Shown: positions 11,969 through 64,000 of the stretch, one piece after another
How positions within the stretch are numbered: position 1 is the stretch's first letter
Layout: the number at the start of each line of letters is the position of its first letter
Assembly: GCF_964204645.1 (NCBI RefSeq)
Contig: NC_134032.1
Span: 10,224,275 to 10,288,274 of the forward strand
Direction: 5' to 3'
DNA length: 64,000 nucleotides
Source of the DNA: Tubulanus polymorphus
Taxonomy: Eukaryota > Nemertea > Palaeonemertea > Tubulaniformes > Tubulanidae
Notes under the pieces: generated by a model
What the model saw: only the letters and a program-made list of their open reading frames with translations
What the model was told of the DNA's origin: nothing
The model's database searches: none
Made by a program: the position numbers and the translations under genes

Positions 11969-11975
<7 letters not shown>

Positions 11976-14267: not shown

Positions 14268-14343
14268 TGTTTTTTTTTTATCTCTGATACCGAAGACGCA
14301 ACGAAAATGCTGGAGCATTTATAATGAAAATAGAGAAAGCTTT

Positions 14344-14888: not shown

Positions 14889-14911
14889 ACGCGAACTAGT
14901 TATTCCTGGGT

Positions 14912-16328: not shown

Positions 16329-16343
16329 TTGGATATGATGTAA
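16329..16343 (+). pseudogene. Duplicate of the last XRCC5 coding exon
   Basis: This five-codon exon (L-D-M-M-stop) and its polypyrimidine-CAG acceptor are identical to 9054-9068. It could only act as an alternative terminal exon giving the same protein end. Confidence 0.8.
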
Positions 16344-17380
16344 GAAGAAAGTTCCAACCTTTATTCGAGTGAAATTCAAGGCAGCATCCGAATATTCCGC
16401 GCATAAAAAAATGTTTTAGATTGTTAAACGTGTGCACATGTGTGCATGCAAGTTTATTGGACTTGGTTGTGTAGAATCCTGAAAAAATTTAGGCCCCTAC
16501 TGAAAGTTCAACAGAAAGTTTGTTGGAACTGTTTAAATTTCTTTTTACCGCAAATTCAGTTAAAGGGTGGGTGGATCGAGCTGTCACCACTTGAGCGGTA
16601 CACGTGGATGAACGAAGTTCAAATATGAAAGGATCCTTTATTTCGGACGTACGGAAAATTACATTTTGAATCTCCACACATGCTCAGATTGCTGGATTGC
16701 AGGCTAGCAGAAAAATTTTCTTGGGCGCCCCTCAAACCCAGCCCTCTATGGTGTTGTGATAGTGGAACGAGCAGTACCCAGTAGGGACTGAGTTCCACAG
16801 AAATCCCACAAAATCATATTAATTAGTCCTGTTTTGATATTCATTAATCTTGTAATATTCACGAAACTGGTTAGAATATTTACCTGTATTATTCATGGCT
16901 CAATGTTAATTAAAAATGTATTAAATATTATGTTTTCTTTCATTAAAGTTTTACTTTTGTATAGATTTAGTTAAAGCGTAAGAATCATCGTACATCATTT
17001 GTATATGTGAATAAAAAATACTATGAAAAATGAGTTGAATTTTTATGCTTTTGGTTGTGAGGAGATGCAGTGCGGAGTAGGCACGGTGATGGTCAAGTTC
17101 ATAATGTGGTCCATGGTTGTCTCATAATAGTACCTAGGATACTGGGGTCAAAAACCTTTTTTATCAGGCCCCTGCAGGTTGTCTGGGTCCGAGAATCTAA
17201 ACCATGGGATGTAAAGCTAGGCGTACACACTAAATTTTGCAGTGTTCTACAATCGTAGTGCACTTAATTTCTTGTTGACAGTCTTGCTATGGTCCTACCG
17301 GACTTTTCGCTGCCACTACAGATTGAGAAAGTCCATATCCGTAGATTAGTGACAACCTTCCTTGACAACATACAAACAAG

Positions 17381-19164: not shown

Positions 19165-19250
<86 letters not shown>

Positions 19251-37149: not shown

Positions 37150-40100
37150 AAATATTATGAACAATTCACGATCGCCATCTATTGGAATTTTCCGGAACTA
37201 ACTGTTTCTACGATCTAGTTCTTTCAATTTGTTCAAGTATAGTCGTATACACATGCGCCATCTACATGATCGAACAAGCAATTTTTGTGATGCAGTCGTT
37301 TCTTAATATGTTCAAAAACGTTAGACAAATAATTACGTTGCCTAATTAATTAATTTACGATTTGAATATTTTTTGAACTCATAGATGCATTTGAAATACT
37401 ATATATTTTCATTTCGGGAAGTTTTTGTAATATTGTTTGGGGTCTAAAGGATAATTCGATGCTTTACCCCCTCTGTCGGATTTTCACTGAACTAAATTCA
37501 CAATAGATCCTTTGTGTAAATTCGATGTACAATTTCATAATGGTAGATATGATCAATCCAATGTCTGTTCAGCGTCAACCCAAATCGGAATCAGTATCAA
37601 TGGACCAAATATCTCCATCTTTTCTTTAGACAAATAATAGACAAATAACTACGTAGCCAAATCAATTAATTTACGAGCAATTTGAATATGCTTTCAATTC
37701 ATAGATGCACTTAGAATACTGTATATTTTCATTTTGGGAGATTCTTGTGTCTCAATCTGGCGTCTAAAGTGTATTTCAATGCCGTACCCCCTCTGTCGGA
37801 TCACTGAATTAAGATCGCAATAGTTCCTTTGTGTAAATTCTATATGCATTTTCATACGGTATGAAATGATGAATTCGACGTCTGTTCAGCATCAGTGCAA
37901 CTCAGAATCAGCACCTTTGCACCAAACATCTCTGTCTTCTTAATTATCTATTCATCATCACCTGGACAACTGTGAATCAGTACCAGAATAGATCGCGTTT
38001 GCAGCTAACTCTATTCATTCTTAGTGACCAGGATGCTGAATAGGTGATAAGATGTTACAGGTTCGGACCCAGGACCCCCTGGTTATCCGCTGAATGTCTG
38101 GACCACTGTAAATCGGTATCAAAACACCTGGATTGAACTTGGTACACGGTCCCTGGTTTGATTCTGCGTGTTCTGTTGCCATGTGTCCATTTAAATAAAT
38201 GATAACTAGAGGTGCCCCAGGTTCGAGCCAGGTCCGATACTTATCCACGACATTTGCTGAAAAAACCACCCAGACAAAACTCAAGGTTCCAACCTGGGAT
38301 ACTCCTAATTTTTTAGGATATGATAGAACCAATTACGAATTTTTTTACTTATCGATAATTTATTCAACAAATATTTCTAAAAGCAATTAAGTTTTACACA
38401 TTTACGCATTTTGAATATGTTTTCAATTCATAGATGCATTTAAAACACTTTATATTATGATCTCGGGAGGTTTTTGTATTTTTATCTGGCGTCCAAAGTG
38501 TATTTCGATGTTTTACCCCCTCTGTCGGATTTTAACTGAACTAAAATCACAATAGATCCTTTGTGTAAATTCGATATCCATTTTCAATGACGAATTCGAC
38601 GTTTGTTCAGCGTCCGCACAACTCAGTATCAGCACCTTTGCAACAAACATCTCTGTCTTCTACATTATCTATTCATCATCTGGACAACTGTGAATCAGTA
38701 CCAGAATAGACCGCGTTTGCAGCTAACTCTATTCATTCTTAGTGACCAGGATGCTGAATAGGTGATGAGATGTTATCTACAAACGCAGTCTATTTTAATA
38801 CTGATTCACAGTTGGTTCTGAATCGATAGACCAGGCTCGAACCCAGGACCCCCTGGTTATTCACTGAATGTCGGGACCACTCTGAATCGGTATCAAAACA
38901 CCTGGTTTGAACTTGGTACACGGCCCCTGGTTCGATTCTGCGAGTCCTGTTGCTAAATAAATGATAACTAGTGGTGCCCCAGGTTTGAGCCCGGTCTGAT
39001 ACTGATCCAAGAAAAGAAAAAAAACCACCAAGACAAAAGTCAAGGTTCGATTCTCTATTCATCATCTGGACAACTGTGAATCAGTACCAGAATAGATCGC
39101 GTTTGTAGCTAACTCTATTCATTCTTAGTGTTCAGGAGGCTAAATAGGTGATAACATGTTGATAACATGTTGACATGTGTGATAGCATGTTATCTGCAAA
39201 CGCAGTCTATTTTAGTACTGCTTCACAGTTGGTTCTGAATCGATAGACCAGGTTCGAACCCAGGACTCCCTGGTTATCCACTGAATGGCTGGACTACTCT
39301 GAATCGGTATCAAAAATCTGGATTGAGCTTGGTGCCGGGTTTGATTCTGCGGGTCCTGCTGTTGAATAAATGATAACTAGAGGTGCCCCAGGTTCGAGCC
39401 CGGTCTACTGATACTGATCCAAGATAATTTGCTACAAAATCCTCACAGATTACTAGACACAAGGTTCGAACCTGGGATACTCCTAATTGTTAAAGGATAG
39501 GACAGAACCAATATCGATAGTTTTTACTTATCGATGATTTATTTAAAAAATTTCTCAGAACAATAGTTTTATATATCTACATTACATTTGTTAAACCCTC
39601 GACTGCCGGAAAAAGAATCCCTCGACTGCCACAGTAGCATTCTCTACTTACCTCCATATCGATATATGAAAATCTGATACGAATTCTTTACAAAGGATCT
39701 ATTATGATTTTAGTTCAGTGAAAATCCACCAGAGGGGGCAGGGAATCGAAATACCCTAAGACCTAAGAGAAAATGACAAAAACCTCCCGTAATCTTAAAA
39801 TACAGTGTGTTAAATAGATCTATGAATCCAAAACATAATCAAATTACTCGTAAATTAATTATTTTGGCAACGTAATTATTTTCGTAACGTATTTGAACTT
39901 ATTTAGAATGGACCGATATATTCTCAGATATCTGTTTGAGGAATTTCTGGCCTGGAATTTCCATGATTCGGACGTTTCTAAATAAGCTCAAATACGTTGG
40001 ACAAATAATTACGTTGCCAAATCAATAAATTTACGAGCAATCTGAATATGTTTTCAATTCATAGATGCACTTAAAATACTGTATATTTTCATTTCGGGAG

Positions 40101-43100
40101 ATTTTTGTATTTTCATCTGGCGTCTAAAGTGAATTTCGATGCCGTACCCTCTCTGTCGGATTTTCACTGAACTAAAATCACAATAGATCCTTTGTTCAGC
40201 ATCAGTGCAACTCAGAATCAGCACCTTTGCACCAAAAATCTCTGTGTTCTAATTATCTATTCATCATCATCTAGACAACAGTTGGTTCTGATTCGATAGA
40301 CCAGGTTCGAACCCAGGACCCCCTGGTTATCCGCTGAATGTCTGGGCCACTGTGAATCGGTATCAAAACACCTGGTTTGAACTTGGTACACGGCCCCTGG
40401 TTCGATTCTGCGAGTCCTGTTGCTAGATAAATGATAACTAGAGGTGCCCCAGGTTCGAGTCTGGTTTACTGATACGTATCCACAGAACCCAGGACTGCCA
40501 AGTAATGTTCTGAATGTCTAGACCCCTGCTGATTATATGATAACTAGAGGTGGCCCAGGCTGGAGCCCGGTCTGATACTGATCCACGAAATTAGCTGAAA
40601 AAACCACCCAGACAAAAGTCAAGGTTCGAACCTGGGATGCTCCTAATTTTTTAGGATATGATAGAACCAATTACGAATTTTTTTTACTAATCGATAATTT
40701 CGAACAAATATTTCTAAAAGCAATTAAGTTTTACACATTTACATTACATTTAATTAACCCTCGACTGCCAGAGAAAGAATCCATCGACTGCCACAATAGC
40801 ATTCTCTACTCACTATCATATTGATCTATGAAAATCTGTATGAATTCTTCACAAAGGATCTATTATGATTTAGGTTCAGTGAAAATCCGACAGAGGGGGC
40901 AGGGAATCGAAATACCCTTAAGACCTAAGAGAAAATGACAAAAATCTCCCGAAAACATAAAATACAGTGTGTTAAGTGGATCTATGGATCCAAAACATAA
41001 TCAAATTACTCTTAAATTAATTAATCAGGCAACGTAATTATTTTCGTAACGTATTTGAACTTGTTTAGAAACGACTGAATCATAGAAATTCCACGCCAGA
41101 AATCCGTCAAACTGGTATCAGAGAAAAAAGCGGTCGTTTTTAAATACGTTCAAATACGTTACGAAAATAATTACGTTGCCTGGTTAATACGTTAGACAAA
41201 TAATTACGTTGCCAAATCAATTAATTCACGAGCAATTTGAATATGTATTGAATTCATAGATATATTTAAAACACTTTATATTATGATTTCGGAAGTTTTT
41301 TGTATGCTTATTTGGCGTCTTAAGTGTATTTCGATGCTCTATTCCCTCTGTCGGATTTTTGCTGAACTAAAATCACAATAGATCATTTGTGTAAATGCCA
41401 TATGCATTTTCATACGGTAATCAATGATGAATTCGACGTTAGTTCAGTATCAGCGCAGCTCAGAATCAGTACCTCTGCACCAAACATCCCTGTCTTAATT
41501 CTCTATTCATCATACGGACAACTGTGAATCACTACCAGAATAGATCGCGTTTGTAGCTAACTATATTCATTCTTAGTGTTCAGGACGCTGAATAGGTGAT
41601 AACATGTTATCTACAAACGCAGTCTATTTTAGAACTGCTTCACAGTTGGTTCTGAATCGATAGACCAGGTTCGAACCCAGGACTCCCTGGTTATCCACTA
41701 AATGGCTGGACCACTCTGAATCGGTATCAAAACACCTGGATTGAGCTTGGTGCCAGGTTTGATTCTTCGAGTCCTGCTGTTGAATAAATGATAACTAGAG
41801 CCTCAGGTTCGATCCCGTTCTACTGATACTGATCCAAGATAATTTGCTACAAAATCCTCACAGATTAATAGACACGAGGTTCGAACCTGGGATCCTCCTA
41901 ATTGTTAAAGGATAGGACAGAACCAATAACGATAGTTTTTACTAATCGATAATTTATTTTAAAAATTTCTCAGAACAATAGTTTTATATATTTACATTAC
42001 ATTTGTTAAACCCTTGACTGCCGGAGAAAGAATCCGTCGACTGCCACAGTAACATTCTCTACTTACCTCCATATCTATATATGAAAATCTTGATACGAAT
42101 TCTTTACAAAGGATCTATTATGATTTTGGTTCAGTGAAAATCCACCAGATGGGGCAGGGAATCGAAATACCCTTAAGACCTGAAGAAAATGACAAAAACC
42201 TCCCGAAAACATAAAATACTGAATTAAAATCACAATAGATCCTTTGTGATAAGATGTTACAGGTTCGAACCCAGGACCTCTTAGTTATCCGCGGAATGTC
42301 TGGACCACTGTGAATCGGTATCAAAACACCTGGATTGAACTTGGTGCCGGGTTTGATTCTGCGAGTCCCGCTGTTGAATAAATGATAACTAGAGGTGCCC
42401 CAGGTTCGAGCCTGGTCTACTGATACCGATCCAAGATAATTTGCTACAAAATCCTCACAGATTAATAGACACAAGGTTCGAACCTGGGATACTCCTAATT
42501 GTTAAAGGATAGGACAGAACCAATAACGATAGTTTTTACTAATTGATGATTTATTTTAAAAATTTCTCAAAACAATAGTTTTATATATTTACATTACATT
42601 TGTTAAACCCTCGACTGCCGGAGAAAGAATCCCTCGACTGCCACAGTAGCATTCTCTACCTCCATATCGATATATGAAAATCTGATACGAATTCTTTACA
42701 AAGGATCTATTATGATTTTAGTTCAGTGAAAATCCGACAGAGGGGGCAGGGAATGGAAATACCCGATGTATATAATAGTATATATAGTATTGTAAATAGT
42801 TGATGTATATATATATTTCGTTACGTTTTCATTCTCTAAATTTTAATCACTTCAGTGTTGTTTTGTAAATATTTGTATATACATGTGTAATAGTTTTCCT
42901 CCATATACCATGGAAATGGTTGGAGTGTAAATAAATCGTAATCGTAATCGTAATCGTAACCCTTAAGACCTAAGAGAAAATGACAAAAACATCCCGCAAT
43001 CTTACAATACAGTGTGTTCAATAGATCTATGAATCCAAAACATAATCAAATTACTCGTAAGTTAATTAATTTGGCAACGTAATTATTTTAGTTACGTATT

Positions 43101-46065
43101 TGAACTTATTTAGAAACGATCGCTTTATTCTCTGATACCAGTTTGATGGATTTCTGGCATTGAATTTCCAGGATTCGGTTGTTTCTGAATAAGCTCAAAT
43201 ACGTTTGGCAAATAATTACGTTGCAAAATCAATTAATTTAAGAGCATTTTGAATATGTTTTCAATTCATAGATTCATTCAAAACACTTAATATTGTGATC
43301 TCGGGAGGTTTTTGTATTTTTATCTGGCGTCCAAAGTGTATTTCGATGTTTTACCCCCTCTGTCGGATTTTCACTGAACTAAAATCACGATAGATCCTTT
43401 GTGTAAATTCGATATCCATTTTCAATGACGAATTCGACGTTTGTTCAGCATACACACTACTCAGTATCAGCACCTTTGCAACAAACATCTCTGTCCTCTT
43501 CATTATCTTTTCATCATCTGGACAACTGTGAATCAGTACCAGAATAGATCGCGTTTGCAGCTAACTCTATTCATTCTTAGTGACCAGGATGCTGAATAGG
43601 TGATAAGATGTTATCTACAAACGTAGTCTATTTTAGTACTGATTCACAGTTGGTCCATTTTAGTACCGATTCACAGTTGGTTCTGAATCGATAGACCAGG
43701 CTCGAACCCAGGACCCCCTGGTTATCCACTGAATGTCGGGACCACTCTGAATCGGTATCAAAACACCTGGTTTGAACTTGGTCTACGGCCCCTGGTTCGA
43801 TTCTGCGAGTCCTGCTGCTAAATAAATGATAACTAGAGGTGGCCCAGGTTTGAGCCCGGTCTGATACTGATCCAAGAAAAGAAAAAAAAAAACAACCCAG
43901 ACAAAAGTCAAGGTTCGAACCTGGGATACTCCTAATTTTGTATTTAGGATATGACAAAATCAATAACGAATTTTCTTACTTATCGATAATTTATTCAATA
44001 AATATTTCTGAAAGCAATTAAGTTTTACACATTTACATTACATTTACCAAACCCTCGACTGCCAGCGAAAGAATCCCTCGACTGCCGCAGTAGCATTCTC
44101 AACTCACCTTCATATTACTATATGAAAATATGTATGAATTCTTCACAAAGGATCTATAATGATTTTAGTTCAGTGAAAATCCGACAGAGGGGGCAGGGAA
44201 TCGAAATACCCTTTAGACCTAAGAGAAAATGACAAAAATCTCCCGAAATCATAACATACAGTGTGTTAAATGGATCTATGAATTTAAAACAAAATCAAAT
44301 TACTCGCAAATTAATCAATATGGCAACGTTATTATTTTCGTAACGTATTTGAACTTATTTAGAAACGACCGCTATATTCTCTATATCTATTCTTTGGTGT
44401 GAAATGTCTATGATTCAGTCGTTTCTAAATAAGTTCAAATACGTTGGACAAATAATTACGTTGCAAAATTAATGAATTTACAAGCAATTTGAATATGTAT
44501 TGAATTCATAGATGCATTTCAAACACTTTATATTATTATTTCGGGAAGTTTTTGTATTCTTATCTGGCGTCCAAAGTGTATTTCGATGTTTTCCCCCCTC
44601 TGTCGGATTTTCACTGAACTAAAATCACAATAGATCCTTTGTGTAAATGCTATATGCATTTTCATACGGTAATCAATGATGAATTCGACGTCTGATCAGC
44701 ATCAGCACAGATCAGAATCAGTACCTCTGCACCAAACATCCCAGTCTTAATTCTCTATTCATCATCTGGACAACTGTGAATCAGTACCAGAATAGATCGC
44801 GTTTGTAGCTAACTCTATTCATTCTTAGTGTTCAGGACGCTGAATAGGTGTTAACATGTTATCTACAAACGCGGTCTATTTCTAGTACTGCTTCACAGTA
44901 GGTTCTGAATCGATAGACCAGGTTCGAACCCAGGACTCCCTGGTTATCCATTGAATGTCTGGACCACTCTGAATCGGCCCCAGGTTCGAGGCCGGTCTAC
45001 TGATACACATCCAAGATAATTTGCTACAAAATCGAGCAATCTGAATATGTTTTCAATTCATAGATGCACTGAAAATACTGTATATTTTCATTTCGGGAGA
45101 TTTTTGTATTTTTATCTGGCGTCTAAAGTGTATTTCGATGCTCTACTCCCTCTGTCGGATTTTCACTGAACTAAAATCACAATAGATCCTTTGTTCAGCA
45201 TCAGTGCAACTTAGGATCAGCACCTTTGCACCAAACATCTGTCTTCTAATTAGTCTATTTTAGTACTGATTCACAGTTGGTCCATTTAAGTACCGATTCA
45301 CAGTTGGTTCTGAATCGATAGACCAGGCTCGAACCCAGGACCCCCTGGTTATTCACTGAATGTCGGGACCACTCTGAATCGGTATCAAAACACCTGGTTT
45401 GAATTTGGTCTACGGCCCCTGGTTCGATTCTGCGAGTCCTGTTGCTAAATAAATGATAAATAGTGGTGCCCCAGGTTTGAGCCCGGTCTGATGCTGATCC
45501 AAGAAAAGAAAAAAACCACCCAGACAAAAGTCAAGGTTCGAACCTGGGATACTCCTAATTTTGTATTTAGGATATAAGAGAACCAATAACGAATTTTCTT
45601 ACTTATCGATAATTTATTTACAATTATTTCTAAAAGCAATTAAGTTTTGAATAAGAATTCTTCACAAAGGAGCTATTATGATTTTAGTTCAATGAAAATC
45701 CAACAGATGGGGTAAAGCATCGAAATACCCTTTATACATCAAAGAAAATTGTAAGAACCCCCCGAAATGAAAATATATGGTATTTAAAACACATCTATCA
45801 ATTCAAAACATATTCAAATTACTTGTTGATTAAATGATTAGACAACGTAATTATTTGTCTAACGTATTTGAACTTATTTCGAAACGACTGTAATAATATC
45901 TCAAACCGGTTTTACGGGTTTCTGGTAGTTCTAGTTTAGTCTCATAGATGGCGAATGTGTGTAAGCATGCACTTCCAGGAATTGTTAGAGCTAGATCGCA
46001 GAAACACTTAGTTCCGGGAAATTCTAATAGATGGCGATCGTGTATGAATCATTAATAATAGCGTT
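37150..46065. repeat. ~9 kb palindromic repeat complex with inverted ends
   Basis: The outermost ~500 bp are inverted: 37150 onward (CGATCGCCATCTATTGGAAT, then CAGTCGTTTC) mirrors the stretch ending near 46065. Inside, a module starting CAGTCGTTTCT and running to CACAATAGATCCTTTG recurs forward near 37293, 37630, 38402, 39970, 41120, 43170, 44412 and 45030, and inverted near 39640, 40800, 42060, 42660, 44110 and 45655. Between opposed modules are repeats carrying GGTTCGAACC words (about 38020, 38800, 39210, 40270, 41640, 42240, 43640, 44890, 45250). No transposase frame is seen; open frames of 60-118 codons are repeat translations. Confidence 0.8.
42765..42958. mobile_element. Retroposon 3' end with (CGTAAT)n tail
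   Basis: TTTTCCTCCATATACCATGG followed by AAATGGTTGGAGTGTAA ends in a short CGTAAT repeat, and the same end recurs at about 60836-60895. A simple-repeat tail after a constant 3' end fits a non-LTR retroposon. It interrupts an inverted module of the palindromic complex. Confidence 0.5.
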
Positions 46066-49993: not shown

Positions 49994-50524
49994 TTTCTAA
50001 TCGCTGTCATCAGAGATACACGCCAGAAAAATTTTTTTTCGAAATGAAACAAGCCGCATCAAAAACATCCAGCCGGTGTATAGTTAGATTGTTTACGGCT
50101 AGCAGTAATCAAATTACTTGCGCAATGCATAGTTTCGAGTCCCAATATTTTAAGTTATTATAAAAGGGTAGGTCCCGGGTTCGAATCTATCCTGTCGGTA
50201 TTCGGAAACGGCCGGCTAGTGTATAACTGAAATAGTGTTGGACACAAATATTTTACTAATAAAACATAATCATGCTTCACCAAGAACCTTTGTCTGATGT
50301 ACCACAGAGTGGGTACACTAAGGATCGTAGAGCGACGTAGATCACTGTGGAGCCACACTACAGGACTGGGTGAAAATTATACACGCAACTTTAGGTTGTT
50401 CGGTGGTGTACCAGAACACCGTTTCAAGATGGCGGCTATGTAGAGGGCGCCATGGGACAATACAGTGAGAACAGGACCACCGCATACAACACGGGCCGAA
50501 AGCATCCGTAGCAACACTGGTATC

Positions 50525-50790
50525 AGTAGTATCATCGGTCTCTGAGAGGATCGGACAGTATCACTGGTAACAGTGGTATCGGGGTAGCAGTAGTATCATC
50601 GGTCTCTGAGAGGATCGGACAGTATCAGTGGTATCAGTGGTATCGGGGTAGCAGTAGTATCACCGGTCTCCTGAAGGATCGGGCAGTATCACTGGTATCA
50701 GTGGTATTGGGGTAGCAGTAGTATCACCGGTCTGGGAGAGGATCGGGCAGTATCACTGGTAACAGTGGTATCGGGGTAGCAGTAGACTTT
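50525..50790 (-). repeat. Left arm: ~4 copies of the 64 bp repeat, inverted
   Basis: Units read TCGGTCTCTGAGAGGATCGG, CAGTATCACTGG and TATCGGGGTAGCAGTAGTAT, the reverse complement of the 53940-55650 array. Confidence 0.85.
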
Positions 50791-51154: not shown

Positions 51155-51553
51155 TGGAAGATTTGTTGAAGGCGTATCAAATTATCTAACTTTATCGGGT
51201 AATCTCAAACTCAAGCGGGTACAGATCAGTCGTCAGGAAAGATATTCAAAAAAATATTCAACGCAGGCTTAAACTGCAAATAACCCTCTTTAAACTCTGT
51301 AAAAATTGGAAATATAGCTTTAAGAGATACTTAGATATTTTGAAATTAATGAATGTTGCGATTTCTTTTACGCGCGGTTAAGATATGCGGTCCTTGGGGT
51401 CACATCGTCAGTGTTCTCAATTGTTGCGTTCAAAAATTCCAAGAAACGCCAGCAAATATCTGCATTTCGTTTCCTTAAAAATGGTGTATAAATTAATTTC
51501 GTCGAGCAAGGGACTGCAGAACTATATGATATTCAATCTAAACTTATGATTAA

Positions 51554-51640
51554 AAATGAGTGCAAATTATCGCAACAATGGGGACCTCGAGGGACCGCCA
51601 CAAAATGGCGCCTAGAAACTGGAAACTTCTTTATTTAAAA
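51554..51640. repeat. Dispersed repeat shared with 63283-63367
   Basis: About 85 bp containing GCAAATTATCGCAACAATGG and AATGGCGCCTAGAAACTGG is nearly identical to the stretch just beyond Cys-rich gene 3. Confidence 0.8.
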
Positions 51641-53710: not shown

Positions 53711-53939
53711 TGTAGTGTAAGTAGATACAATCTTAAGGTCAATTAATTCATATTTATGATACATATATCTAATTTATTATTGTGGAACATCTTAAGGATA
53801 TCATGATCATACAAACTTTGAATTAAAACATTACTACAAATTAACACAGTTCATCGCACATTTCAAATATACTACACTAGCTTGAATCTTAAATATCTAG
53901 AATTAAAAGTTCACTATTGCTTATAACTTCATGGCATAC

Positions 53940-55650
53940 TGCCCGATCCTCTCCCAGACCGGTGATCCTACTGCTACCCCAATACCACTGATACCAGTGA
54001 TACTGTCCGATCCTTCAGGAGACCGGTGATACTACTGCTACCCCGATACCACTGTTACCAGTGATACTGTCCGATCCTTCTGGAGACCGGTGATACTACT
54101 GATACCCCGATACCACTGATACCAGTGATACTGCCCGATCCTTCTGGAGACCGGTGATACTACTGCTACCCCGATACCACTGTTACCAGTGATACTGCCC
54201 GATCCTCTCCGAGACCGGTGATACTACTGCTACCCCGATACCACTGTTACCAGTGATACTGCCCGATCCTCTCCGAGACCGGTGATACTACTGCTACCCC
54301 GATACCACTGTTACCAGTGATACTGGCCGATCCTCTCCGAGACCGGTGATACTACTGCTACCCCGATACCATTGTTACCAGTGATACTGCCCGATCCTTC
54401 TGGAGACCGGTGATACTACTGCTACCCCAATACCACTGATACCAGTGATACTGCCCGATCCTTCAGGAGACCGGTGATACTACTGCTACCCCGATACCAC
54501 TGTTACCAGTGATACTGTCCGATCCTTCTGGAGACCGGTGATACTACTGCTACCCCGATACCACTGATACCAGTGATACTGCCCGATCCTTCAGGAGACC
54601 GATGATACTACTGCTACCCCGATACCACTGTTACCAGTGATACTGTCCGATCCTCTCAGAGACCGATGATACTACTGCTACCCCGATACCACTGTTACCA
54701 GTGATACTGTCCGATCCTCTCCGAGACCGGTGATACTACTGCTACCCCGATACCACTGATACCAGTGATACTGTCCGATCCTTCTGGAGACCGGTGATAT
54801 ACTGCTACCCCGATAGCACTGATACCAGTGATACTGTCCGATCCTCTCGGAGACCGGTGATACTACTGCTACCTCGATACCACTGATACCAGTGATACTG
54901 TCCGATCCTTCTGGAGACCGGTGATACTACTGCTACCCCGATACCACTGTTACCAGTGATACTGCCCGATCCTCTCCGAGACCGGTGATACTACTGCTAC
55001 CCCGATACCACTGATACCAGTGATACTGCCCGATCCTTCTGGGGACCGGTGATACTACTGCTACCCCGATACCACTGATACCAGTGATACTGCCCGATCC
55101 TTCTGGAGACCGGTGATACTACTGCTACCCCGATACCACTGTTACCAGTGATACTGCCCGATCCTTCTGGAGACCGGTGATACTACTGCTACCCCGATAC
55201 CACTGTTAACAGTGATACTGTCCGATCCTCTCCGAGACCGGTGATACTACTGCTACCCCGATACCACTGATACCAGTGATACTGCCCGATCCTCTCGGAG
55301 ACCGGTGATACTACTGCTACCCCGATACCACTGTTACCAGTGATACTGTCCGATCCTCTCCGAGACCGGTGATACTACTGCTACCCCGATACCACTGTTA
55401 CCAGTGATACTGTCCGATCCTCTCCGAGACCGGTGATACTACTGCTACCCCGATACCACTGATACCAGTGATACTGTCCGATCCTCTCCGAGACCGGTGA
55501 TACTACTGCTACCCCGATACCACTGTTACCAGTGATACTGTCCGATCCTCTCCGAGACCGGTGATACTAGTGATTCCACGATACCACTGATACCAGCGAT
55601 ACTGTCCGATCCTCTCCGAGACCGGTGATACTACTGATACCCCGATACCA
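53940..55650 (+). repeat. 64 bp tandem repeat array, ~27 copies
   Basis: The unit runs GATCCTCTCCGAGACCGGTG, ATACTACTGCTACCCCGATA, CCACTGTTACCAGTGATACT, GCCC. Successive starts at 54201 and 54265 give the 64 bp period. Variation is confined to a few positions (CTCTCCGAG or CTTCTGGAG; GTTACC or GATACC), suggesting recent amplification or homogenisation. Confidence 0.95.
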
Positions 55651-56004
55651 CTGATACCAGTATTGCTACGGATGCTTTCGGCCCGTGTTGTATGCGGTGG
55701 TAATGTCCTGTTCTCACTGTATTGTCCCATCGCGCCCTCTACATAGCCGCCATCTTGAAACGGTGTTCTGGTACACCACTGACTAACCCAACTTTAATGT
55801 TCCAATATAGTTTCAAAATATAAACGCCCTCATTCCGTGACAAATGCCTTTATTTGTCATTCGTATCTATATCAGACATCAAAAATGGAATTAGAATTGT
55901 AATCGGATCCACTTCAAATTATTCTCGAATTTTGGATTTCAAGTCAGAACTGTATATTGTACAAGAAATCGAATTTCGCACCATATCTTTTGCCGACGTA
56001 TTTA

Positions 56005-57247
56005 TTAACCGGAACAATCCTGAAAAAAAATGAATAAAAATAAACACATATTTCTACTCTGACTACAAACTTAGTCAATCTTTCAGACCTACATTAAATA
56101 AGATAGCAATAACAGAGGTGGATTAAGTCCCCCTATTTTTCCAAGATAACATATTATGGCACACTTTAATTTTGTTTTCGAATATTCACTCCTTTTGTAG
56201 TCGGCACCAAGGACGACGTTTTTTTTAATGATTCTTCAATAATGAAAATGCCATATACGGTACTGACACGTGAGTATCGTTGGAAGCTTACAACTCCAGC
56301 TACATGGAACTGAATTTCGTGTCCACGGAAACCGGTGCATTTCTTTCTTTCCTTCTTAACAGGTCGCGTTGGTCGAGAGCCCCGACAGGCGTTAATTGCC
56401 CCTTTGGGACTCGCTCTTCGAGTGCCGGTACTATAATGTGCTTACAACGAAGTTTTTGGGGTTATTCTAAATATCCGGATCTTTGCCCCTGAATAACGGA
56501 ACCTTTTCCATATATAAACTAGGTGATTTCAAACTAAGTGGTGTGCTAAAATAGTCTCCAGACAGGCCTATGCATGACCCTAAAGAGGTCCATGTTCGTC
56601 TTGCTTTAGGCCTACATAGATCGGATCTACTAAAGACTAACATAATCTCGGATTATTCATCTAACAAAGTTACGGCCTTTCTTGTGTTGCCCGACACTCT
56701 GAAAACAGCCAGTTCGTAATTAACACTTGTACAGTTTCATTTACCCCTCCATTCTCTTCTCGCATGGTACGACAGATACATTCAGGCTTGTCGTTATCCG
56801 CGGAGCATTCCTGGTCGGCGTAAAATCGGCACAGTTCGACGCACTCGTCCTCGGTGAGCCCAGTACAGCTTTGTTTACAGAAGCCATCGTCTCCTCGGCA
56901 AGTCTCATCAGCAATCTCACAGAGAGACACGCACGACGCATCTGGTCCACTGGGGCCGTTGCATTTTGTTTCGCAAGATTCCAACGCCCAAGCGTCAAGA
57001 GCCAAATACCCTAAAAAGATACGGCCAAACATTTCAGAAAGAAACTTCGGACATGTTTAAGGAGATGGCTTCATGAATCCCCTTTGACATCAACTAACTA
57101 CCTCTCTGCAGCACCAGCCATGATTCATTAAAAGGATTAGATCACAATTAAGTAAATTAATGGTGTCATAGGGGGAAGTCGACCGATCATGTGCCTACCT
57201 AGAACTACTAATCCACAAATTGCGCATAAACTTTTTCGAGAAGCCAT
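56005..57247 (-). CDS. Secreted cysteine-rich protein, family member 1
   Basis: Not recognised as a known family. Three exons join in phase: 57199-57247, 56745-57010 and 56005-56019, giving 109 aa. A signal peptide (MASRKSLCAICG...ALDAWA) is split across exons 1 and 2. The mature part is rich in Cx3C pairs: Cys 29/33, 43/47, 61/65 and 73/77, plus 54, 85, 94 and 96, with a final Cys in the short last exon (D-C-S-G-stop). Exon 2 reads on without splicing to 56670 (129 aa), but the GTAAAT donor at 56744 and the CAG acceptor at 56020 are matched in all three copies. AATAAA at 55854-55849. A non-coding first exon probably ends at the GTAAGT donor at 57356. Two CX3C-Xn-CX3C units recall helical hairpin folds, which is only a resemblance. 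Confidence 0.72.
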
Positions 57248-57356
57248 CTTCTTTTCTACAAGACCGCTGAAAAAGACACGAAAACGAGTAACTGGGGAAG
57301 ATTGATTGCAGCATAAATCATTCTTTATAGATAAATTATCATGAAATGATACTTAC

Positions 57357-57420
57357 ATTTAACAAGTGAAGAAATGTAGTTGTTCAGTGCTATCGTTGCC
57401 TGGGTCTCAACTGAAGTGAG
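57357..57420 (-). other. Predicted non-coding first exon of Cys-rich gene 1
   Basis: Minus strand ...CACTTGTTAAAT followed by GTAAGTATC. The matching segment of copy 2 (AATGTGAGTATT, donor at 60162) is conserved, with AGGCAACGATAGCACTGAAC-like sequence upstream. The 5' end is unknown. A 92-codon open frame over this region is not conserved in copy 2. Confidence 0.4.
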
Positions 57421-57699
57421 GCACTAGAGATTACGGAACACTCTTGATTTTCTGGAACAAGCTGCATTTGATGGTATCGATATGTACATAAAAAGTTCAT
57501 ACATGCCCATATTGATATAGCTCTACGTATGAGATTTTCATAAGTTTCTATACATTCGCGGCTTATGCATGCATACATACGTACGTACGTGTACATTGCC
57601 TTTAGCGATATGGAACTTAAAGCTTTGAACAGAAATTTCTGCATCAGATCTGCCTTTTCGGGCCTCATGTCATCCCATAAGGATCATCTATTGTAACCA

Positions 57700-58990
57700 C
57701 CTATTGTATCATATTATGTAGTACAGCTTCTTTTTCTCTCTCTTATGCTGCAACCACCATGACACGTAGACACAAACATATCAGTTGATAATAATATCAA
57801 GACAGCGTTTTCTTGTGTTCATCATAGCCTAGAGAACACCATGACAGTTATAACGGTTCTGTAGAGCATCGGTAAATTCTCGTTCAATTTTTTAAAGAAA
57901 ATGGAATTTGAAAGACGTAATTTCTATTTCAAAGAATCAGTACATATTACTAGGCCGAACATATCTATTTATTCTTTATTTGTCATCTGGAAAACCGGAA
58001 ATCAGTATCAATTTTACACGGGTTCTAAAACCTCGCACAAACTGGTTATCATCTATCGGCATCCAGGCCACTAAAATACAAATAGGCCGGGGCTGAAACT
58101 AAACTAGGACTCGTAGTTACCGTCCGTTCATATAGTATCCATCTAAAACGCGGAATCAGTACCAGACCTGTTTCCAACCTGGTACATCCCTGGTTACTGA
58201 TCGGAGATTCCTAGACATTGTTGTAGAGTCACCAGCACTCACTGGTGCTGTAGCAGAATTACAAATACACTACGGTGCTGAATGGGGAGGGACAAACCAA
58301 GGTGCCAAGGATCGAACCCGTTCTATAGATAGTGCACGGTAAATCGCTGCTAGGAGAAAAACTCGCGGACAATAAATAAAGATACTTAATTTCTAAGTTT
58401 AATAAGAACCTATTACGATTTTTTAACTTATCAATAGCTTATTCGTTAGATATTTCAAAACCATTTTCTTTTAGATAATCCATCAATAAGTACATCATAT
58501 TTATTTACATACTTTTACTAAACCCTCGCCTGCCAGATAAAGAATCCATCGACTGCCACAGTAGCTTTCTCAACTCGACCTCCTATTGCTATACACAAAT
58601 ATCTATGAATTCTTTACAAAGGATCTATTGTGATATTAGTTCAGTGAAAATCCAAAAGAGGGGGTAGAACATCGAAATAGACTTTAGACCCCAGCATTAG
58701 CATCATGATCACTAGGAATCATGTCCACCAATAGACCCGGTTCGAATCTAGGACACCGGGCGTGTTGATCGCCGTAGACCCAGGGTTAGAATCTATCCCG
58801 CTAGAATTCAGATAAGTTTATTTGTGAACGGCTTAGCTAGCTGCGGGGGAAACGGGGTTGGACACGTCAACTAATATACTTAGGCAGGTTTCGAGTTCGA
58901 ATCTACGAAGTTTTAATCATTGGGGCCGGTCCAATTTGCTAAGATGTCTTCTTCTCACAGGCCCCGGCACCATCGTACTTTTTTTTACAA
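57700..58990. repeat. Intergenic with fragments of the palindromic complex and tRNA-like repeats
   Basis: 58470-58690 matches the inverted module of the 37-46 kb complex (CTCGCCTGCCAG, AAGGATCTATTGTG, GTTCAGTGAAAATCC). 58700-58900 carries GGTTCGAATC words, with a GCTAGCTGCGGG-type body shared with 50160-50250 and 61960-62170. No gene seen. Confidence 0.55.
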
Positions 58991-59239
58991 ATCATCTAGA
59001 TTACGAAACATTTTTCAGGTGCCAATTAAGTTTGAAAATAACGCAACCATACGATTCAAATATCTTTATTTTGCATTAGTTACTATCTCATCAGACATGA
59101 AAATAAGAATTAGTGTTTTAATCGAATCCACCTTCACGCCTTCAATTATTTCAAACTCCAAAGAGGTAGATGCTAAGTTGGTATCGTGTAATTTCGAATC
59201 TAACAATTAACAATTCTGCAAAGTCCGAAAACGTTTCCT

Positions 59240-59310
59240 ATAGTGCTAGTAATTTAGTCGGCGTTTCGACTATATTCTAATAGTCATCTTCAGCAATATA
59301 ACTCGGACTT
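59240..59310 (-). ncRNA. Degenerate hammerhead-like motif
   Basis: Minus strand CTGAAGA (59293-59287), a 6 bp stem GACTAT/ATAGTC, then GAAACGCC. It has the same extra U before stem II as the 11281 motif. No clear NUH cleavage triplet follows. Confidence 0.25.
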
Positions 59311-59346
59311 TGTCCATCGATAACATTGCGGGATTCTCAATTGCTC

Positions 59347-59467
59347 GTAGGTTTCATCCTCCCTCGGCAGGGATTCGAACCTGATCATGGCATCGCTACA
59401 CTCAGCCGCGGCACGAACCGTGGCTATCTCGATGCCATCAGGTTCGAATCCCCGCCGAGGGAGGATG
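59347..59467. repeat. Long hairpin of two opposed tRNA T-arm-like sequences
   Basis: CCTCCCTCGGCAGGGATTCG plus AACCTGATCATGGCATCG is mirrored almost perfectly by CGATGCCATCAGGTTCGAAT plus CCCCGCCGAGGGAGG, with ~50 bp between. Both arms carry GGTTCGAATCC. It lies immediately 3' of exon 2 of the decayed Cys-rich gene, in its intron 2. Confidence 0.8.
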
Positions 59468-60239
59468 GGTCCGTTAGTCCATCGTTCATTTACCTTACTA
59501 TTCTCCTCCTATCGCATGGCATCGAGGATACATTCCGACTGGTTGTCGCTCGCCTTGCATTTCCACTCGGCGTACGAACGACAAAAGCCATCAGCTCCAT
59601 CACACGCGTCAAAAGCAATAATACAGAAAGACTGACATGATTTTCTATCCTCGGCAAGTTGACACTTTCCTACACAAAACATTCCCCAAGAATCTTTTTG
59701 CGCGCATGCGCCAATCACCAAATACCCTACAACAATACACCAGAAATTTCGGAAAAGTTTGAAAACCCGATGGTTTCATTAACCCCATACGACATCCTCA
59801 AATTACTCCTATAGACACTTCCAGAAAAAGATGTTTGCCTCCATAAATCCCCCTCCTACGACAACGTCCATCTACACCCCCGTCCTGAAGGTTCTTTCAA
59901 AAACATTTATCAACAGATTGAATCACCAAGGTAGGTAATCTAATGATGTCATTATGGGCTAGTCGACCAATCATATGTACCTACCTAAGACTCTACCAAT
60001 CCACAAATGACGCGAAGACCTATTTTTCCTGTAGCCATTTTTTTCGCTGAAAAAGACAGGGAAACGGGAGTAACCGGAGTAAACGGGGAAGTTAGAGAAA
60101 ATTGAATGCTGCATAAGCCAAGACCATTCTCTGAATATTAATGTCATTAAGGTAATACTCACATTCGATAAGAGGAAAAAAGAGTTGTTCAGTGCAGTCG
60201 TCGTTGCCTGGGATTGAACATGAGTGAAGTGCTAGAGAT

Positions 60240-61200
60240 TTTGAAAAGCCAAATAAATGCACCTGCATTTGATGGTTGTGACGTGTACATAAAAATTCCT
60301 TTGTTCATAGAAATTACTTCATATATTTTAAAAATACTTATTAATCATATGATTTCAGAACTTTCTATACATTCAAGGCTTATGTTGTATGTATATTTGA
60401 AATTTTGAACTGAAATTTCATAGTATTATCACTGATCTGTTCGGCTCTGGGATCCAGTTTCAGTGTTGTAAATTAGATTCATACTATGAGTCAGAATTAG
60501 TTTGTTTTTCAATGGGCTAATTCTGTGGGGCATACCCGAAATTCAGACGCATCTATGTTTCGACGCTTCGATACTTCATCGCTGATAATGGGATATTGGC
60601 AACTACAGATGGCGTGACGAGCACTCAAATGATTGCGTAAAAAACTACTTAAATCTAAATACCTTTCGGAACCTTGATGTTTTTAAGAGATCCAACTTTT
60701 AAACTGGCTAAATTTATCAAATTTCGTAGGTCTAGATGTAAATAGATCCCTCCGGTAGTATGGAAATAGTATGTCGTAAATAACGTTCGTTATGTTTTCT
60801 GTTATTTCCTGTTTCTTTAAATAATTGTAAATACTGTTTTCCTCCATATACCATGGAAATGGTTGGAGTGTAATTCGTATTCGTATTGAGCTTTCCTAAC
60901 ACCTTTTTATGTAAAATTTTACAATTACTTAATGCTGTGAATAACAATATCCTAATTGAACTCACTAGATTAGTAAATGTTGGCCTCAAGTTACTCAAGT
61001 AAATTTCATGTATACGTATATATTATACCCATTATTATTCTATTCCATGTGTATTTTTGTTTTCATGTTTTAAGTTTTGTAAATAATACATTTTCATTGT
61101 ATAAATTGATCTAACCTGTAACTCTATGTACCAATGTTTGGTTAGAGAGAAATAAACCATCATATTCTAATTTATTCTGAACTAAACCTAGAATCTACAT
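60240..61200. other. Intergenic, no gene seen
   Basis: AT-rich sequence upstream of Cys-rich member 2. It holds a second copy of the retroposon 3' end (CCTCCATATACCATGGAAAT near 60840, short CGTATT-like tail). No coding signal supported. Confidence 0.5.
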
Positions 61201-61264
61201 TACTATACATTGCGGAGAAAAGATAACACCTGTTTGACGCGTGCAAGGCTGAATCGACGTGGAG

Positions 61265-61585
61265 CATTAGTGCGGTGATATTTCAGTGAAAATCCAACAG
61301 AGGGGGTACAACATCGAAAAACCCTTAAGACCCCTGAGAAAATGACGAAAAACTTCCCGAAATGAAAATATACAGTGACATGAATACGTTGATGAATTCG
61401 AAACATATTCAAATTACTCGTAAATTAATTAAACAGGCAACCTAATTATTTGTCTAACGTATTTGAACTTATTTCGAAACGACTGTTTCATTATCGTCTG
61501 ACACCAGTTTGATGGGTTTCTGGTGTGGAATTTCTACAATTCAGTCGTTTCTAAATAAGTTCAAAATACGTTGCCTGATGAATTG
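61265..61585. repeat. Isolated inverted module plus hinge of the palindromic complex
   Basis: AGTGAAAATCCAACAGAGGG through CGTATTTGAACTTATTTCG to CGAAACGACTG, then a ~60 bp hinge and CAGTCGTTTCTAAATAAG. This is the same order as in the 37-46 kb complex. Confidence 0.7.
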
Positions 61586-61959
61586 ACAAGTAACTTGAAT
61601 AGATTTCGAATGCAAAGGTGTATGCTGTACATTTAACTGGTTACCATCTATTCAGCGTCTTGGTAATGAATTATTTTCTCCACAAAAAATTTACAATTAA
61701 GAAAATATGTAAGGAAGATGGTTGATTTACAATATGGAGAGGGACAACAAGCAAGCTATAAAAGCCGAACACAACAACAAGTGCTGAGGCGAGGTGCCCC
61801 AGTGCGTCCACATACCAAAGAATCATAACAGTCATAGGCACGTGTTCGAACCTCAGGCACTTCTGTTTATCCGATCTATACAACATAAAGACCACTTAAA
61901 GTCACCGTCAACAGACTGGGTTCGAACTACCTCGCGAATCTCCTGTAGACTATGCATTC

Positions 61960-62170
61960 TGCATCAGGATCGCTAGGAATCACGCGTATCAGTGGACCCG
62001 GTTCGAATCTGAGACACCGCAGGTCGTTCTCTCTTAGCGCAGGTCCGGGGTTCGAATCTGTCCCGCCGGAATTCGGATCAGATTATTTGCCAACGGCTAG
62101 CTGTAACCAAAATGCTGTTGGGCTCAACTGATCTACTGATATAGGCAGGTTTTGCCGAGTTAGAATATGT
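61960..62170. repeat. tRNA-like SINE remnant with two GGTTCGAATC boxes
   Basis: CCCGGTTCGAATCTGAGACA and GGGGTTCGAATCTGTCCCGC are followed by a GCCAACGGCTAGCTGTAACC body also seen near 50160-50250 and 58740-58890. No cloverleaf can be drawn. Confidence 0.5.
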
Positions 62171-62216
62171 CAAGTTTGTCCGATCGTTCACGTCTAGGGT
62201 CCGAATAATGCACCAT

Positions 62217-62332
62217 GTTAACAAATAAAAACCCACAGTTAGGTCTGTAAAACAGTTTATTTTTCCGGCAGTATCGAAGCTTTAACTAAACCCCTTTTTC
62301 ACTGACCTAACTGTGGGTTTTTATTTGTTAAC
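62217..62332. mobile_element. Small MITE with perfect 29 bp inverted ends
   Basis: GTTAACAAATAAAAACCCAC plus AGTTAGGTC (62217-62245) is exactly the reverse complement of 62304-62332. Total 116 bp. TGCACCATGT occurs before it (62209-62218) and again at 62366-62375. Confidence 0.75.
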
Positions 62333-62688
62333 TCTACACTGAGATAGAAATCAGTTAATTGCAGTACTGCACCATGTATTAGTTCATTGATCTGGAGTTA
62401 GAATCTGCCAATATTGTCCTTTCCTCCTGAGCCTGGAGCCATCGTTTCTTTTTTTTGGTATTCCAAGGATCTTTTTATTTCAAAAATCATCTAGCTTGCG
62501 AAATGGTTTGTCAGGTTCCAATAACGCACTCGTTTTTGGGATAAAATATCTTTATTTTTCATTCGTAACTTATTGTACATCAAAAAACAGATCGAATTCA
62601 AATTTCAATTGATTTTTAGAGTTTTAGATTTTAAGTCGGAATCGTACAAGAAATTATCGAATTTTGCCACATCTTTTGGCGACGCATT

Positions 62689-63971
62689 CTATTCGTCGGA
62701 ACAATTCTGAAAATGAAATGAATTTAGAATATATATTTCTCCGACTAAATTTAGGCGTGTACTTAGGCCCCTATTTTCATCTGCAAAAAAACATTTTGTT
62801 TTAGAGTCACTCTAGATACTCATGGCATGAAATGGTAATTTTTTTCAAATTGTCGAGGGGAGGGCCACAAACCCTTCCGGCGCTCGGTGTTCGTGTACCG
62901 TAATGTATATACGACTTGGCATAGTTGGTTTCGGGACCCTCCTATTCTAGATTTCTGGATCCGGCTCTGAATACAAAACTTTTTTCCACGCTACGACCAA
63001 ACTAAATTCAAAACAATACTTACCGATAAAAAAGATTTCGAAATTTGAAATTCTAAACTCTGGTGGTAGCTGACAAGAAAAATACTGGGGCCAGTTTTAT
63101 AGACTGGTATCAACTTTAACCCGGGGCTAACTTCATTCATTTTCAATTGAGTTAACCCCCTGGTTAAAGGTAATACCAGTCTACAAATCCGAGCCCTGTT
63201 GTTCTACTTAAAAAAATGTTTAAGGTTTGTAAATTCTATTTTGTAAATATCACTGTGCATCTCGACACAAATAGACCATTGGGTTAAAAATGAGCGCAAA
63301 TTATCGCAACAATGGGGACCTCGAGGGACCGCCACAAAATGGCGCCTAGAAACTGGAAACTTCTTTATTGAATTGAATTAAACCTCGCGACGGGTTTGCC
63401 TTTTTGGTGTAGTGAACAATATACACTGAAAGCAGCCAGGTCCTTTAGTACATTTTTACCCACCTCGCTATTCTCGAGGACGGATTTACGGATACATTCA
63501 GCCGTGTCAGCGGCTTCTATGCAATCAACATCGGCCCTTAATCGGCACAAATTAATGCAGAAGTCTACCTCGAGTTCACAGTGCTGTTTACAGAAGCCAT
63601 CGTTGCCCCCACAAGTCGCATCAGCAATCTCACAGCGAGACACACACTGGTTGCCGCCTGATACGATTTCACATTTTGATTCACAACTAATCACCTCCGC
63701 CCAAGCGCCAAGCGCCAAATACCCTACAACGATACACCCAAACATTTCATTGAAATAAAATTCGGACAAGTTTAAGAAAAGGGCTTCGTAAATCCCCTGT
63801 GATATCATCAAAATACGTACCACTCTGAAGCTTCTGCCAGAAATTGTTAACAAGATTAGAGGATAAGTGTAGGTAATTTAATGATGTCATAAGGGGAAAT
63901 CGACCGATCATGTGCCTACCTAGAACTATCAATCCGTAAATGACGCATAAATTAGTTTTTCCCAAAGCCAT
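62689..63971 (-). CDS. Secreted cysteine-rich protein, family member 3
   Basis: Paralogue of the gene at 56005-57247, function unknown. Exons 63920-63971, 63464-63723 and 62689-62706 join in phase to 109 aa. Signal peptide MALGKTNLC...LALGAWA. The mature part again has Cx3C pairs (CESKC, CVSRC, CKQHC, CINLC) with single cysteines between, ending SVLENSE-NCSDE-stop. The shared stretch EIADxTCxGxDGFCKQ is the best conserved. Reading through the GTGGGT donor at 63463 would give a 136 aa protein whose stop falls at the edge of a dispersed repeat, so the spliced form is preferred. AATAAA at 62556-62551. The ATG lies 30 bases from the window end; upstream sequence is not visible. Confidence 0.72.
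63087..63195. mobile_element. Palindromic MITE (GGGGCCAGTTTTATAGAC ends)
   Basis: GGCCAGTTTTATAGACTGGT is mirrored by ACCAGTCTACAAATCCGAGC, with an inner palindrome TTAACCCGGGGCTAAC/GTTAACCCCCTGGTTAA. It lies in intron 2 of Cys-rich gene 3. Confidence 0.6.
63283..63367. repeat. Dispersed repeat, second copy
   Basis: Nearly identical to 51554-51640, ending AACTTCTTTATT. It abuts the unspliced stop codon of Cys-rich gene 3. Confidence 0.8.
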
Positions 63972-64000
63972 CGTTTTTTCTTATAAGACCACTGAAAAGG

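What the first reader, a model, noticed from the sequence alone, without database searches (positions are those of the whole stretch)
56005..63971. Tandem family of unrecognised secreted Cys-rich proteins built on Cx3C pairs
Two intact 109 aa members and one decayed member share gene structure, a split signal peptide and a 12-13 cysteine pattern with four Cx3C pairs arranged as two CX3C-Xn-CX3C units. I cannot match this to a named domain. A fast-evolving tandem cluster of such proteins suggests a lineage-specific secreted function (mucus, matrix or defence are guesses).
Basis: partly seen in the sequence, partly recalled or inferred. Interest (0 to 1): 0.78.

Follow-up and report, generated by a model that had tools for sequence, protein, structure and literature searches.

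The report
Orphan secreted cysteine-rich tandem gene family
Three neighbouring genes, one of them broken, encode small secreted proteins that keep the same cysteine framework while much of the rest has changed, and that match no known family in the libraries searched; what they do is not known.

Summary
On the minus strand two intact genes, each with three coding exons, encode 109-residue proteins, with GT..AG coding introns and one intron inside the signal peptide. A 5'UTR exon and polyA block are also conserved. The middle copy is broken. All 12 cysteines of mature member 3, including four CX3C pairs, are matched in member 1, against 28 of 69 other residues. Exon-wise searches of the 268-Mb genome found only these three loci. 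For these proteins nothing reached a cut-off in Pfam or NCBIfam, and there was no credible match in PDB or in the viral and prokaryotic collections. dN/dS of 0.48 supports real proteins. Divergence is uneven: the mature region is twice as diverged as intron 1 and the 5'UTR intron. But intron 2 and the upstream flank are no more alike than shuffled DNA, so a conserved or converted 5' half explains this at least as well as venom-like acceleration. AlphaFold weakly favours helices. 'Mollusc' is not supported; a Lox5-type Hox gene suggests a lophotrochozoan. Function is inferred, not shown.

The parts
57357..57432 (-). member 1: inferred 5'UTR exon (5' limit not known), ending at a GTAAGT donor
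   Evidence: conserved in all three copies: 61/76, 57/75 and 61/78 identical columns
57199..57266 (-). member 1 exon 1: inferred 5'UTR tail plus first 49 nt of CDS (57247-57199), first half of the signal peptide
57011..57198 (-). member 1 intron 1 (188 nt, phase 1), inside the signal peptide; 149/188 identical to m3; holds a piece of a dispersed short repeat
56745..57010 (-). member 1 exon 2: rest of the signal peptide and nearly all of the mature protein (12 of 13 mature Cys)
56005..56019 (-). member 1 exon 3: last 4 codons (with the last Cys) and stop
55849..55854 (-). member 1 AATAAA polyA signal, in a block conserved in all three copies
   Evidence: sequence; block aligned
59509..60038 (-). 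member 2, decayed copy: exon-1 frame broken before the donor; exon 2 (from 59726) lacks 16 codons and ends in a stop at 59509-59511; 8 Cys left in the mature part of exon 2
59065..59070 (-). member 2 AATAAA polyA signal
   Evidence: sequence; block aligned
63920..63991 (-). member 3 exon 1: inferred 5'UTR tail plus first 52 nt of CDS (63971-63920)
   Evidence: its 5'UTR exon lies beyond the window in L004
63724..63919 (-). member 3 intron 1 (196 nt)
63464..63723 (-). member 3 exon 2: rest of the signal peptide and mature protein (11 of 12 mature Cys)
62689..62706 (-). member 3 exon 3: last 5 codons (with the last Cys) and stop
62551..62556 (-). member 3 AATAAA polyA signal
   Evidence: sequence; block aligned

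Best explanation
A small tandem family of secreted, acidic (pI about 4), roughly 9-kDa disulfide-rich proteins, restricted to these loci in this genome as far as searched. The mature chain is probably mostly helical: two successive CX3C-Xn-CX3C units, each followed by a further Cys, plus a C-terminal helix tied in by the last Cys from exon 3. The cysteine framework holds the scaffold while many other residues are free to change. I infer an extracellular binding role, most likely a defence, recognition or gland-secreted effector ligand, because the family is orphan, tandem, turning over (one dead copy of three) and its mature proteins differ at more than half of their non-Cys positions. Shown: gene structure, conserved cysteine framework, coding constraint (dN/dS below 1), uneven divergence, no hit in the libraries searched. 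Inferred: secretion (signal peptide by sequence), helical fold, disulfide pairing, function. The uneven divergence is not needed for this reading and is more simply explained by a conserved or converted 5' half.
For: Parallel gene models and splice sites. Twelve matched Cys against 28 of 69 non-Cys identities; mature dN/dS 0.48, bootstrap 0.20-0.89, Fisher P 0.016. m2 pairs give dN/dS 0.60 and 0.65. Only three loci in the genome. Acidic mature chains, charge -13 and -11. Two AlphaFold2 runs, m1 first and m3 first, give similar helix-rich best models (pLDDT 85 and 80).
Against: No transcript, tissue or binding data. Four of five AlphaFold models in the first run scored 44-55 and three of five in the second 42-59; in the second run the first Cys of unit A's second CX3C lies in a strand, not a helix. 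Only two intact copies. Orphan status may reflect the libraries: none of those searched is a collection of lophotrochozoan proteins or transcripts. dN/dS below 1 gives no sign of positive selection.
Confidence: 0.4

Rival explanations
1. Venom-like accelerated evolution: selection has driven the mature region to change faster than neutral DNA, with signal peptide and introns as the slow background.
For: For m1-m3: 5'UTR intron 63/78, exon 1 CDS 39/49, intron 1 149/188, signal part of exon 2 24/26, mature 145/231; introns against mature P 4e-5; mature nonsynonymous sites against intron sites P 4e-4 (with slightly different intron limits). Mature also exceeds intron 1 in the m2 pairs (JC 0.59 against 0.39; 0.65 against 0.32). 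3'UTR JC 0.37. The same kind of pattern is described for snake three-finger toxins (PMC2711939 passages).
Against: Intron 2 (43.6% identity) and the 400-nt upstream flank (47.1%) are within the range of shuffled sequence, so neutral DNA here is saturated and the 5' introns are the exception. Mature dS is 0.96 and dN/dS is below 1. In the m2 pairs the 5'UTR intron (0.53 and 0.59) is about as diverged as the mature region. Intron 1 contains a dispersed repeat, so it is a poor neutral yardstick.
Confidence: 0.2
2. Ordinary constrained secreted or matrix protein; the close 5' half (5'UTR exon to signal) of m1 and m3 reflects gene conversion or regulatory constraint, and the mature region shows the true age of the duplication.
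For: Exon-2 or mature dS is high in all three pairs (0.83-0.96), intron 2 and the upstream flank are unalignable, only m1-m3 is close in the 5'UTR intron (0.22 against 0.53 and 0.59), dN/dS is below 1.
Against: The drop in identity lies inside exon 2 near the signal/mature boundary (24/26, then 53/84) rather than at an intron; one dead copy of three and the lack of relatives are less typical of a housekeeping or matrix gene. The conversion part of this account may be right even if the function is effector-like.
Confidence: 0.25
3. A metal-binding or redox protein of the vanabin type: Cys-rich helical secreted scaffold that binds or reduces metal ions.
For: Best Pfam match of mature m3 is Vanabin-2, E 1.5, 9.5 bits; vanabins are Cys-rich with a bow-shaped fold of nine disulfides (PMC9486056 passages).
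Against: Far below the 25-bit cut-off, absent for m1 and for full-length m3. 12-13 Cys instead of 18 (16 in VanabinX). Strongly acidic, while Vanabin2 binds V(IV) through Lys/Arg. No vanabin match in the genome, though nothing rang in the control genomes either.
Confidence: 0.06
4. A divergent Kazal/follistatin-type protease inhibitor, fitting a neighbourhood that also carries TIMP-like exons.
For: Mature m3 against PDB: best hit follistatin-related protein 1, E 0.08, with similar Cys spacing over one stretch. TIMP-like N-terminal exons stand at about 14, 21, 26.6 and 30.4 kb (named by eye, not by Pfam).
Against: Chance-level E-value; no hit for m1 or for the profile; no Kazal model was reported for full proteins or fragments; a Cys stands where Kazal domains carry a conserved Tyr (motif recalled); helices predicted nearby.
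Confidence: 0.05
5. Spurious ORFs or pseudogenes without a protein product.
For: Member 2 is broken; repeats lie nearby; no transcript data.
Against: Two parallel 330-nt CDS with conserved splice sites, 5'UTR and polyA blocks, 12 matched Cys of which 4 have changed codon synonymously, and dN/dS below 1.
Confidence: 0.04

Closest known systems
alpha-hairpinins (plant antimicrobial peptides)
   Same: CX3C-Xn-CX3C framework holding a helix-loop-helix; precursors with several modules exist (PMC11591084 passages). m1 and m3 carry two such frameworks, with helices predicted in both units.
   Different: An extra Cys follows each unit plus a C-terminal part with 2-3 more Cys; one 9-kDa chain; strongly acidic; animal. 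No sequence homology found.
Vanabins (PF11437)
   Same: Cys-rich proteins with a disulfide-held fold.
   Different: 18 conserved Cys (16 in VanabinX) against 12-13; Lys/Arg metal sites against acidic chains; score far below cut-off.
Snake venom three-finger toxins (as a mode of gene evolution only)
   Same: Conserved signal peptide and cysteines, some introns closer than the mature exons (PMC2711939 passages).
   Different: Other fold, no homology; here intron 2 is unalignable, dS is high and dN/dS is below 1.
Kazal/follistatin-like inhibitors
   Same: Similar Cys spacing over one stretch of m3.
   Different: No model hit; conserved Tyr position is Cys; helices predicted.
GASA/snakin and defensin-like (PF02704, PF10868)
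   Same: Cys-rich; weak hits of decayed member 2 only (E 0.71 and 0.035).
   Different: Below cut-off; absent for the intact members.

Membership tests
alpha-hairpinin | CX3C-Xn-CX3C motif | tested here: met
   two such frameworks in m1 and in m3 (Cys gaps 3,9,3 and 3,7,3; 3,8,3 and 3,6,3); definition from PMC11591084
alpha-hairpinin | peptide or module with a 4-Cys or 6-Cys motif | tested here: not met
   12-13 Cys in one mature chain with intervening and C-terminal Cys
alpha-hairpinin | helix-loop-helix fold with C1-C4 and C2-C3 disulfides (pairing recalled) | tested here: inconclusive
   helices roughly in the expected places in low-depth models; coordinates and pairing not seen
Vanabin | Pfam PF11437 above its 25-bit cut-off | tested here: not met
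   9.5 bits for mature m3, no hit for m1
Vanabin | 18 (at least 16) conserved Cys in the core | tested here: not met
   12 conserved Cys; definition from PMC9486056 passages
Vanabin | vanadium/metal binding and reduction | not testable with these tools
   needs recombinant protein
Kazal domain | Pfam Kazal model above cut-off | tested here: not met
   no Kazal hit reported at E up to 10 for full-length or fragments (HMMER filters apply)
Kazal domain | conserved Tyr in C-x6-Y-x3-C (motif recalled) | tested here: not met
   position is Cys in m1 and m3 (sequences; m3 alignment)
Known solved fold | confident Foldseek or sequence match in PDB | tested here: inconclusive
   no Foldseek match at E<=0.001; best second-look Z 5.4, rmsd 3.2, 62 aligned (SigE N-terminal domain), within the range of common arrangements; models are weak
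Venom/defence-type rapidly evolving secreted family (a mode, not a homology group) | mature region diverging faster than introns and signal peptide | tested here: inconclusive
   faster than signal, 5'UTR intron and intron 1 for m1-m3, and than intron 1 for the m2 pairs, but intron 2 and the upstream flank are unalignable
Venom/defence-type rapidly evolving secreted family (a mode, not a homology group) | dN/dS above 1 in the mature region | tested here: not met
   0.48, bootstrap 0.20-0.89
Venom/defence-type rapidly evolving secreted family (a mode, not a homology group) | expression in gland, epithelium or immune tissue | not testable with these tools
   no transcript data

The most novel reading that the evidence does not exclude
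A new animal protein family and possibly a new disulfide-rich helical fold: one chain with two successive CX3C hairpin units (perhaps an internal duplication), used by one lophotrochozoan lineage as a diversifying extracellular effector or recognition ligand.
Probability: 0.3. Interest if true: 0.62.

Novelty: new variant of a known kind. Interest (0 to 1): 0.42.

Why it matters
Orphan secreted Cys-rich families are common in marine invertebrates (general knowledge), but few come with intact gene models, a decayed copy and measured constraint. If the effector reading holds, the locus is a compact system in which to ask what drives such families (pathogens, prey, mates), whether their 5' halves are kept alike by conversion, and whether CX3C hairpins can be built into larger folds.

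Tried and rejected
Vanabin, Kazal/follistatin, iristatin, GASA/snakin, defensin-like, big defensin, metallothionein, endothelin, DUF7468, N1221 and a PHROG terminase name were weighed and rejected as below cut-off, chance-level or limited to one fragment or copy. Fold matches (SigE N-terminal domain, sigma factors, a MUC5AC stretch) were rejected as middling-Z common arrangements. A seeming fourth copy near 47.0-48.2 kb was only a dispersed short repeat shared by intron 1 and other stretches. Viral and prokaryotic collections: 30 and 109 pattern matches, none confirmed at E<=1e-3.

Accelerated evolution as the leading account was demoted after a recount: with corrected 5'UTR limits and shuffled controls, intron 2 and the upstream flank proved unalignable.

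Internal duplication of the two Cys units: suggestive in m1 (14 of 2,000 Cys-fixed shuffles reach the score) but not in m3 (340 of 2,000), so not claimed.

Organism tests on G000: vanabin PF11437, COX1 PF00115, GH6 PF01341 and cuticle PF00379 gave no match; except for COX1 nothing rang in the control genomes either, so these show little. Patterns APGWGKR, QGRFGRED, FMRFGKR and FLRFGKR gave 0 (backward-read controls 0, 0, 1 and 8); GRFGRE gave 7 scattered matches against 16 in the controls. The Hox pattern gave 4, all on one contig, controls 0. Phylum not resolved.

Literature: ten searches, of which some were aimed at such a family; no listed title or abstract start described it. That is no proof of absence in print.
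Full report
Observation. The three genes lie on the minus strand at the right end of the window. Coding introns are GT..AG with lengths 188/725 (m1) and 196/757 (m3). The three copies share an upstream block with a GTAAGT/GTGAGT donor and an acceptor before the ATG, which I read as a 5'UTR exon and intron, and an AATAAA block downstream. Member 2 is decayed: its exon-1 frame ends in a stop before the donor, and exon 2 lacks 16 codons and ends early. In the next 10 kb the only strong match is m3's own 5' region; the rest are chance-level, and a long unrelated ORF follows.

Chance. Four CX3C pairs are reached in 432 (m1) and 281 (m3) of 20,000 shuffles of the same composition: moderately unusual. 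The conservation is stronger: 12 of 12 mature Cys of m3 are matched in m1 against 28 of 69 other aligned residues.

Genome-wide. Searches of the 267.8-Mb assembly with m1 (104 aa) and mature m3 (78 aa) at E<=10 returned only these three loci, exon by exon: 4 matches with m1, 3 with m3. Such searches may miss remote copies.

Families and folds. Pfam gave 0 families for mature m1, Vanabin-2 at E 1.5 for mature m3 and three sub-cut-off names for member 2. Full-length proteins gave nothing for m1 and N1221 at E 0.16 for m3. Of four fragments, three gave sub-cut-off names and one none. NCBIfam gave none; PHROGs one at E 6.6 for m1. PDB by sequence: none for m1 or the profile, two chance-level hits for m3. 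AlphaFold2 on the three-row alignment: best model pLDDT 85, pTM 0.71, the other four 44-55; with m3 first 80, 79, 59, 49, 42, pTM 0.72. The best models agree on a short helix at the second unit's first CX3C pair, a long helix in each unit and a C-terminal helix; the start of unit A differs. Foldseek found no match at E<=0.001 and the second look gave Z at most 5.4. A new fold is neither shown nor excluded.

Evolution. Nei-Gojobori m1-m3 dN/dS is 0.54 overall (bootstrap 0.31-0.91) and 0.48 in the mature region (0.20-0.89); Fisher P is about 0.015-0.016. The m2 pairs give 0.60 and 0.65 for exon 2. Four of the 12 conserved Cys codons differ synonymously. Divergence is uneven. With corrected limits m1-m3 Jukes-Cantor distances are 0.23 (5'UTR exon), 0.22 (5'UTR intron), 0.24 (exon 1 CDS), 0.24 (intron 1), 0.08 (signal part of exon 2) and 0.51 (mature); the 3'UTR is 0.37. 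The two 5' introns against mature give P 4e-5. For the m2 pairs the mature region exceeds intron 1 (0.59 against 0.39; 0.65 against 0.32) but not clearly the 5'UTR intron (0.53 and 0.59). Against an acceleration reading: intron 2 of m1 and m3 is 43.6% identical, where ten shuffles gave 40-47%, and a 400-nt upstream stretch is 47.1%, where ten shuffles gave 42-48%. Freely evolving DNA around these genes is thus saturated, mature dS is 0.96, and the close 5' half is the exception. Intron 1 also carries a dispersed repeat.

Interpretation. Some introns being closer than the mature exon, with a conserved signal peptide, is reported for snake three-finger toxins (PMC2711939; passages read), and I first read the locus that way. 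The unalignable intron 2 makes a converted or constrained 5' half at least as good an account, with the mature region under ordinary purifying selection. I therefore rest the functional inference on other facts: orphan, tandem, one dead copy of three, fewer than half of non-Cys residues kept, acidic disulfide-rich secreted chain. That favours an extracellular defence, recognition or gland effector (0.4) over a structural or housekeeping secreted protein (0.25), without proving either; venom-like acceleration stands at 0.2.

Mechanism proposed. Signal cleavage after AWA (by sequence), oxidative folding into a compact acidic protein (pI 4.05 and 4.27) with two CX3C hairpin units, secretion, and binding of an extracellular partner through variable surface residues. 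Only gene structure, cysteine conservation, constraint and uneven divergence are shown. The two units may be an internal duplication, but only m1 supports it (14 of 2,000 Cys-fixed shuffles; m3 340 of 2,000).

Organism. A pattern for QNRRMKWKK hit four places within 100 kb of contig 6. The translations read, by eye and from recalled signatures, as Antp-, Lox5-, Scr- and Dfd-type homeodomains in that order. Lox5 is listed among the lophotrochozoan Hox genes (PMC5831810 passages). Bryozoans are reported to lack Scr and Antp, and two phoronids too (PMC10675955 passages), so these look unlikely if my naming is right. FMRFamide is reported from all molluscan classes and [A]PGWamides from all conchiferans except Monoplacophora (PMC6425005 passages), yet exact patterns for APGWGKR, FMRFGKR and FLRFGKR found nothing. 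A mollusc is not supported but not excluded, since variants would be missed. The phylum stays open.

Verdict. A real, small, orphan secreted family, confirmed in detail; novel as a family in the libraries searched, of a familiar kind, function unproven.

Noticed in passing
8725-15999 and 16000-23274: Head-to-tail tandem duplication of 7,275 bp at 100% identity: either a very recent duplication or an assembly artefact.
   Followed up: partly
14055-14318, 21330-21593, 26536-26814, 30330-30674 (minus): Four similar N-terminal exons with signal peptide and a C-x-C...FC start resembling TIMP/NTR proteins by eye; Pfam did not name the one tested. Other ORFs with similar C-terminal ends stand at 12620, 19895 and 28640 (two tested, no Pfam family): perhaps a second tandem secreted family.
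   Followed up: partly
53936-55661 and 50519-50785: 64-bp tandem satellite, about 27 copies at 94% matches, with a short piece in inverted orientation about 3 kb away.
   Followed up: no
4047-8389 (plus): Exons of a Ku70/Ku80-type gene (E 3.3e-14), with a Ku C-terminal-like match just under its cut-off.
   Followed up: no
34441-35028 (plus): THEG (testicular haploid expressed) repeat protein exon, E 1.4e-39.
   Followed up: no
37288-45648: Dense field of direct and inverted repeats of about 330-1,170 bp at 76-96% identity.
   Followed up: no
63284-63372 and 51550-51638: 89-bp stretch 97.8% identical, one copy in intron 2 of member 3: perhaps a recent mobile-element insertion.
   Followed up: no
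2182, 47059, 47378, 47585, 48138, and intron 1 of all three members: Short dispersed repeat of the type TCCCCYTATGACATCATTAAATTAC; it makes intron 1 a poor neutral yardstick.
   Followed up: partly
L004:1949-9946 (minus): Single 2,665-codon open reading frame, acidic-looking, with no Pfam family above cut-off.
   Followed up: no
G000 contig 6, 5399695-5498749: Four Hox-type homeodomains (Antp-, Lox5-, Scr- and Dfd-type by eye) within about 100 kb.
   Followed up: partly
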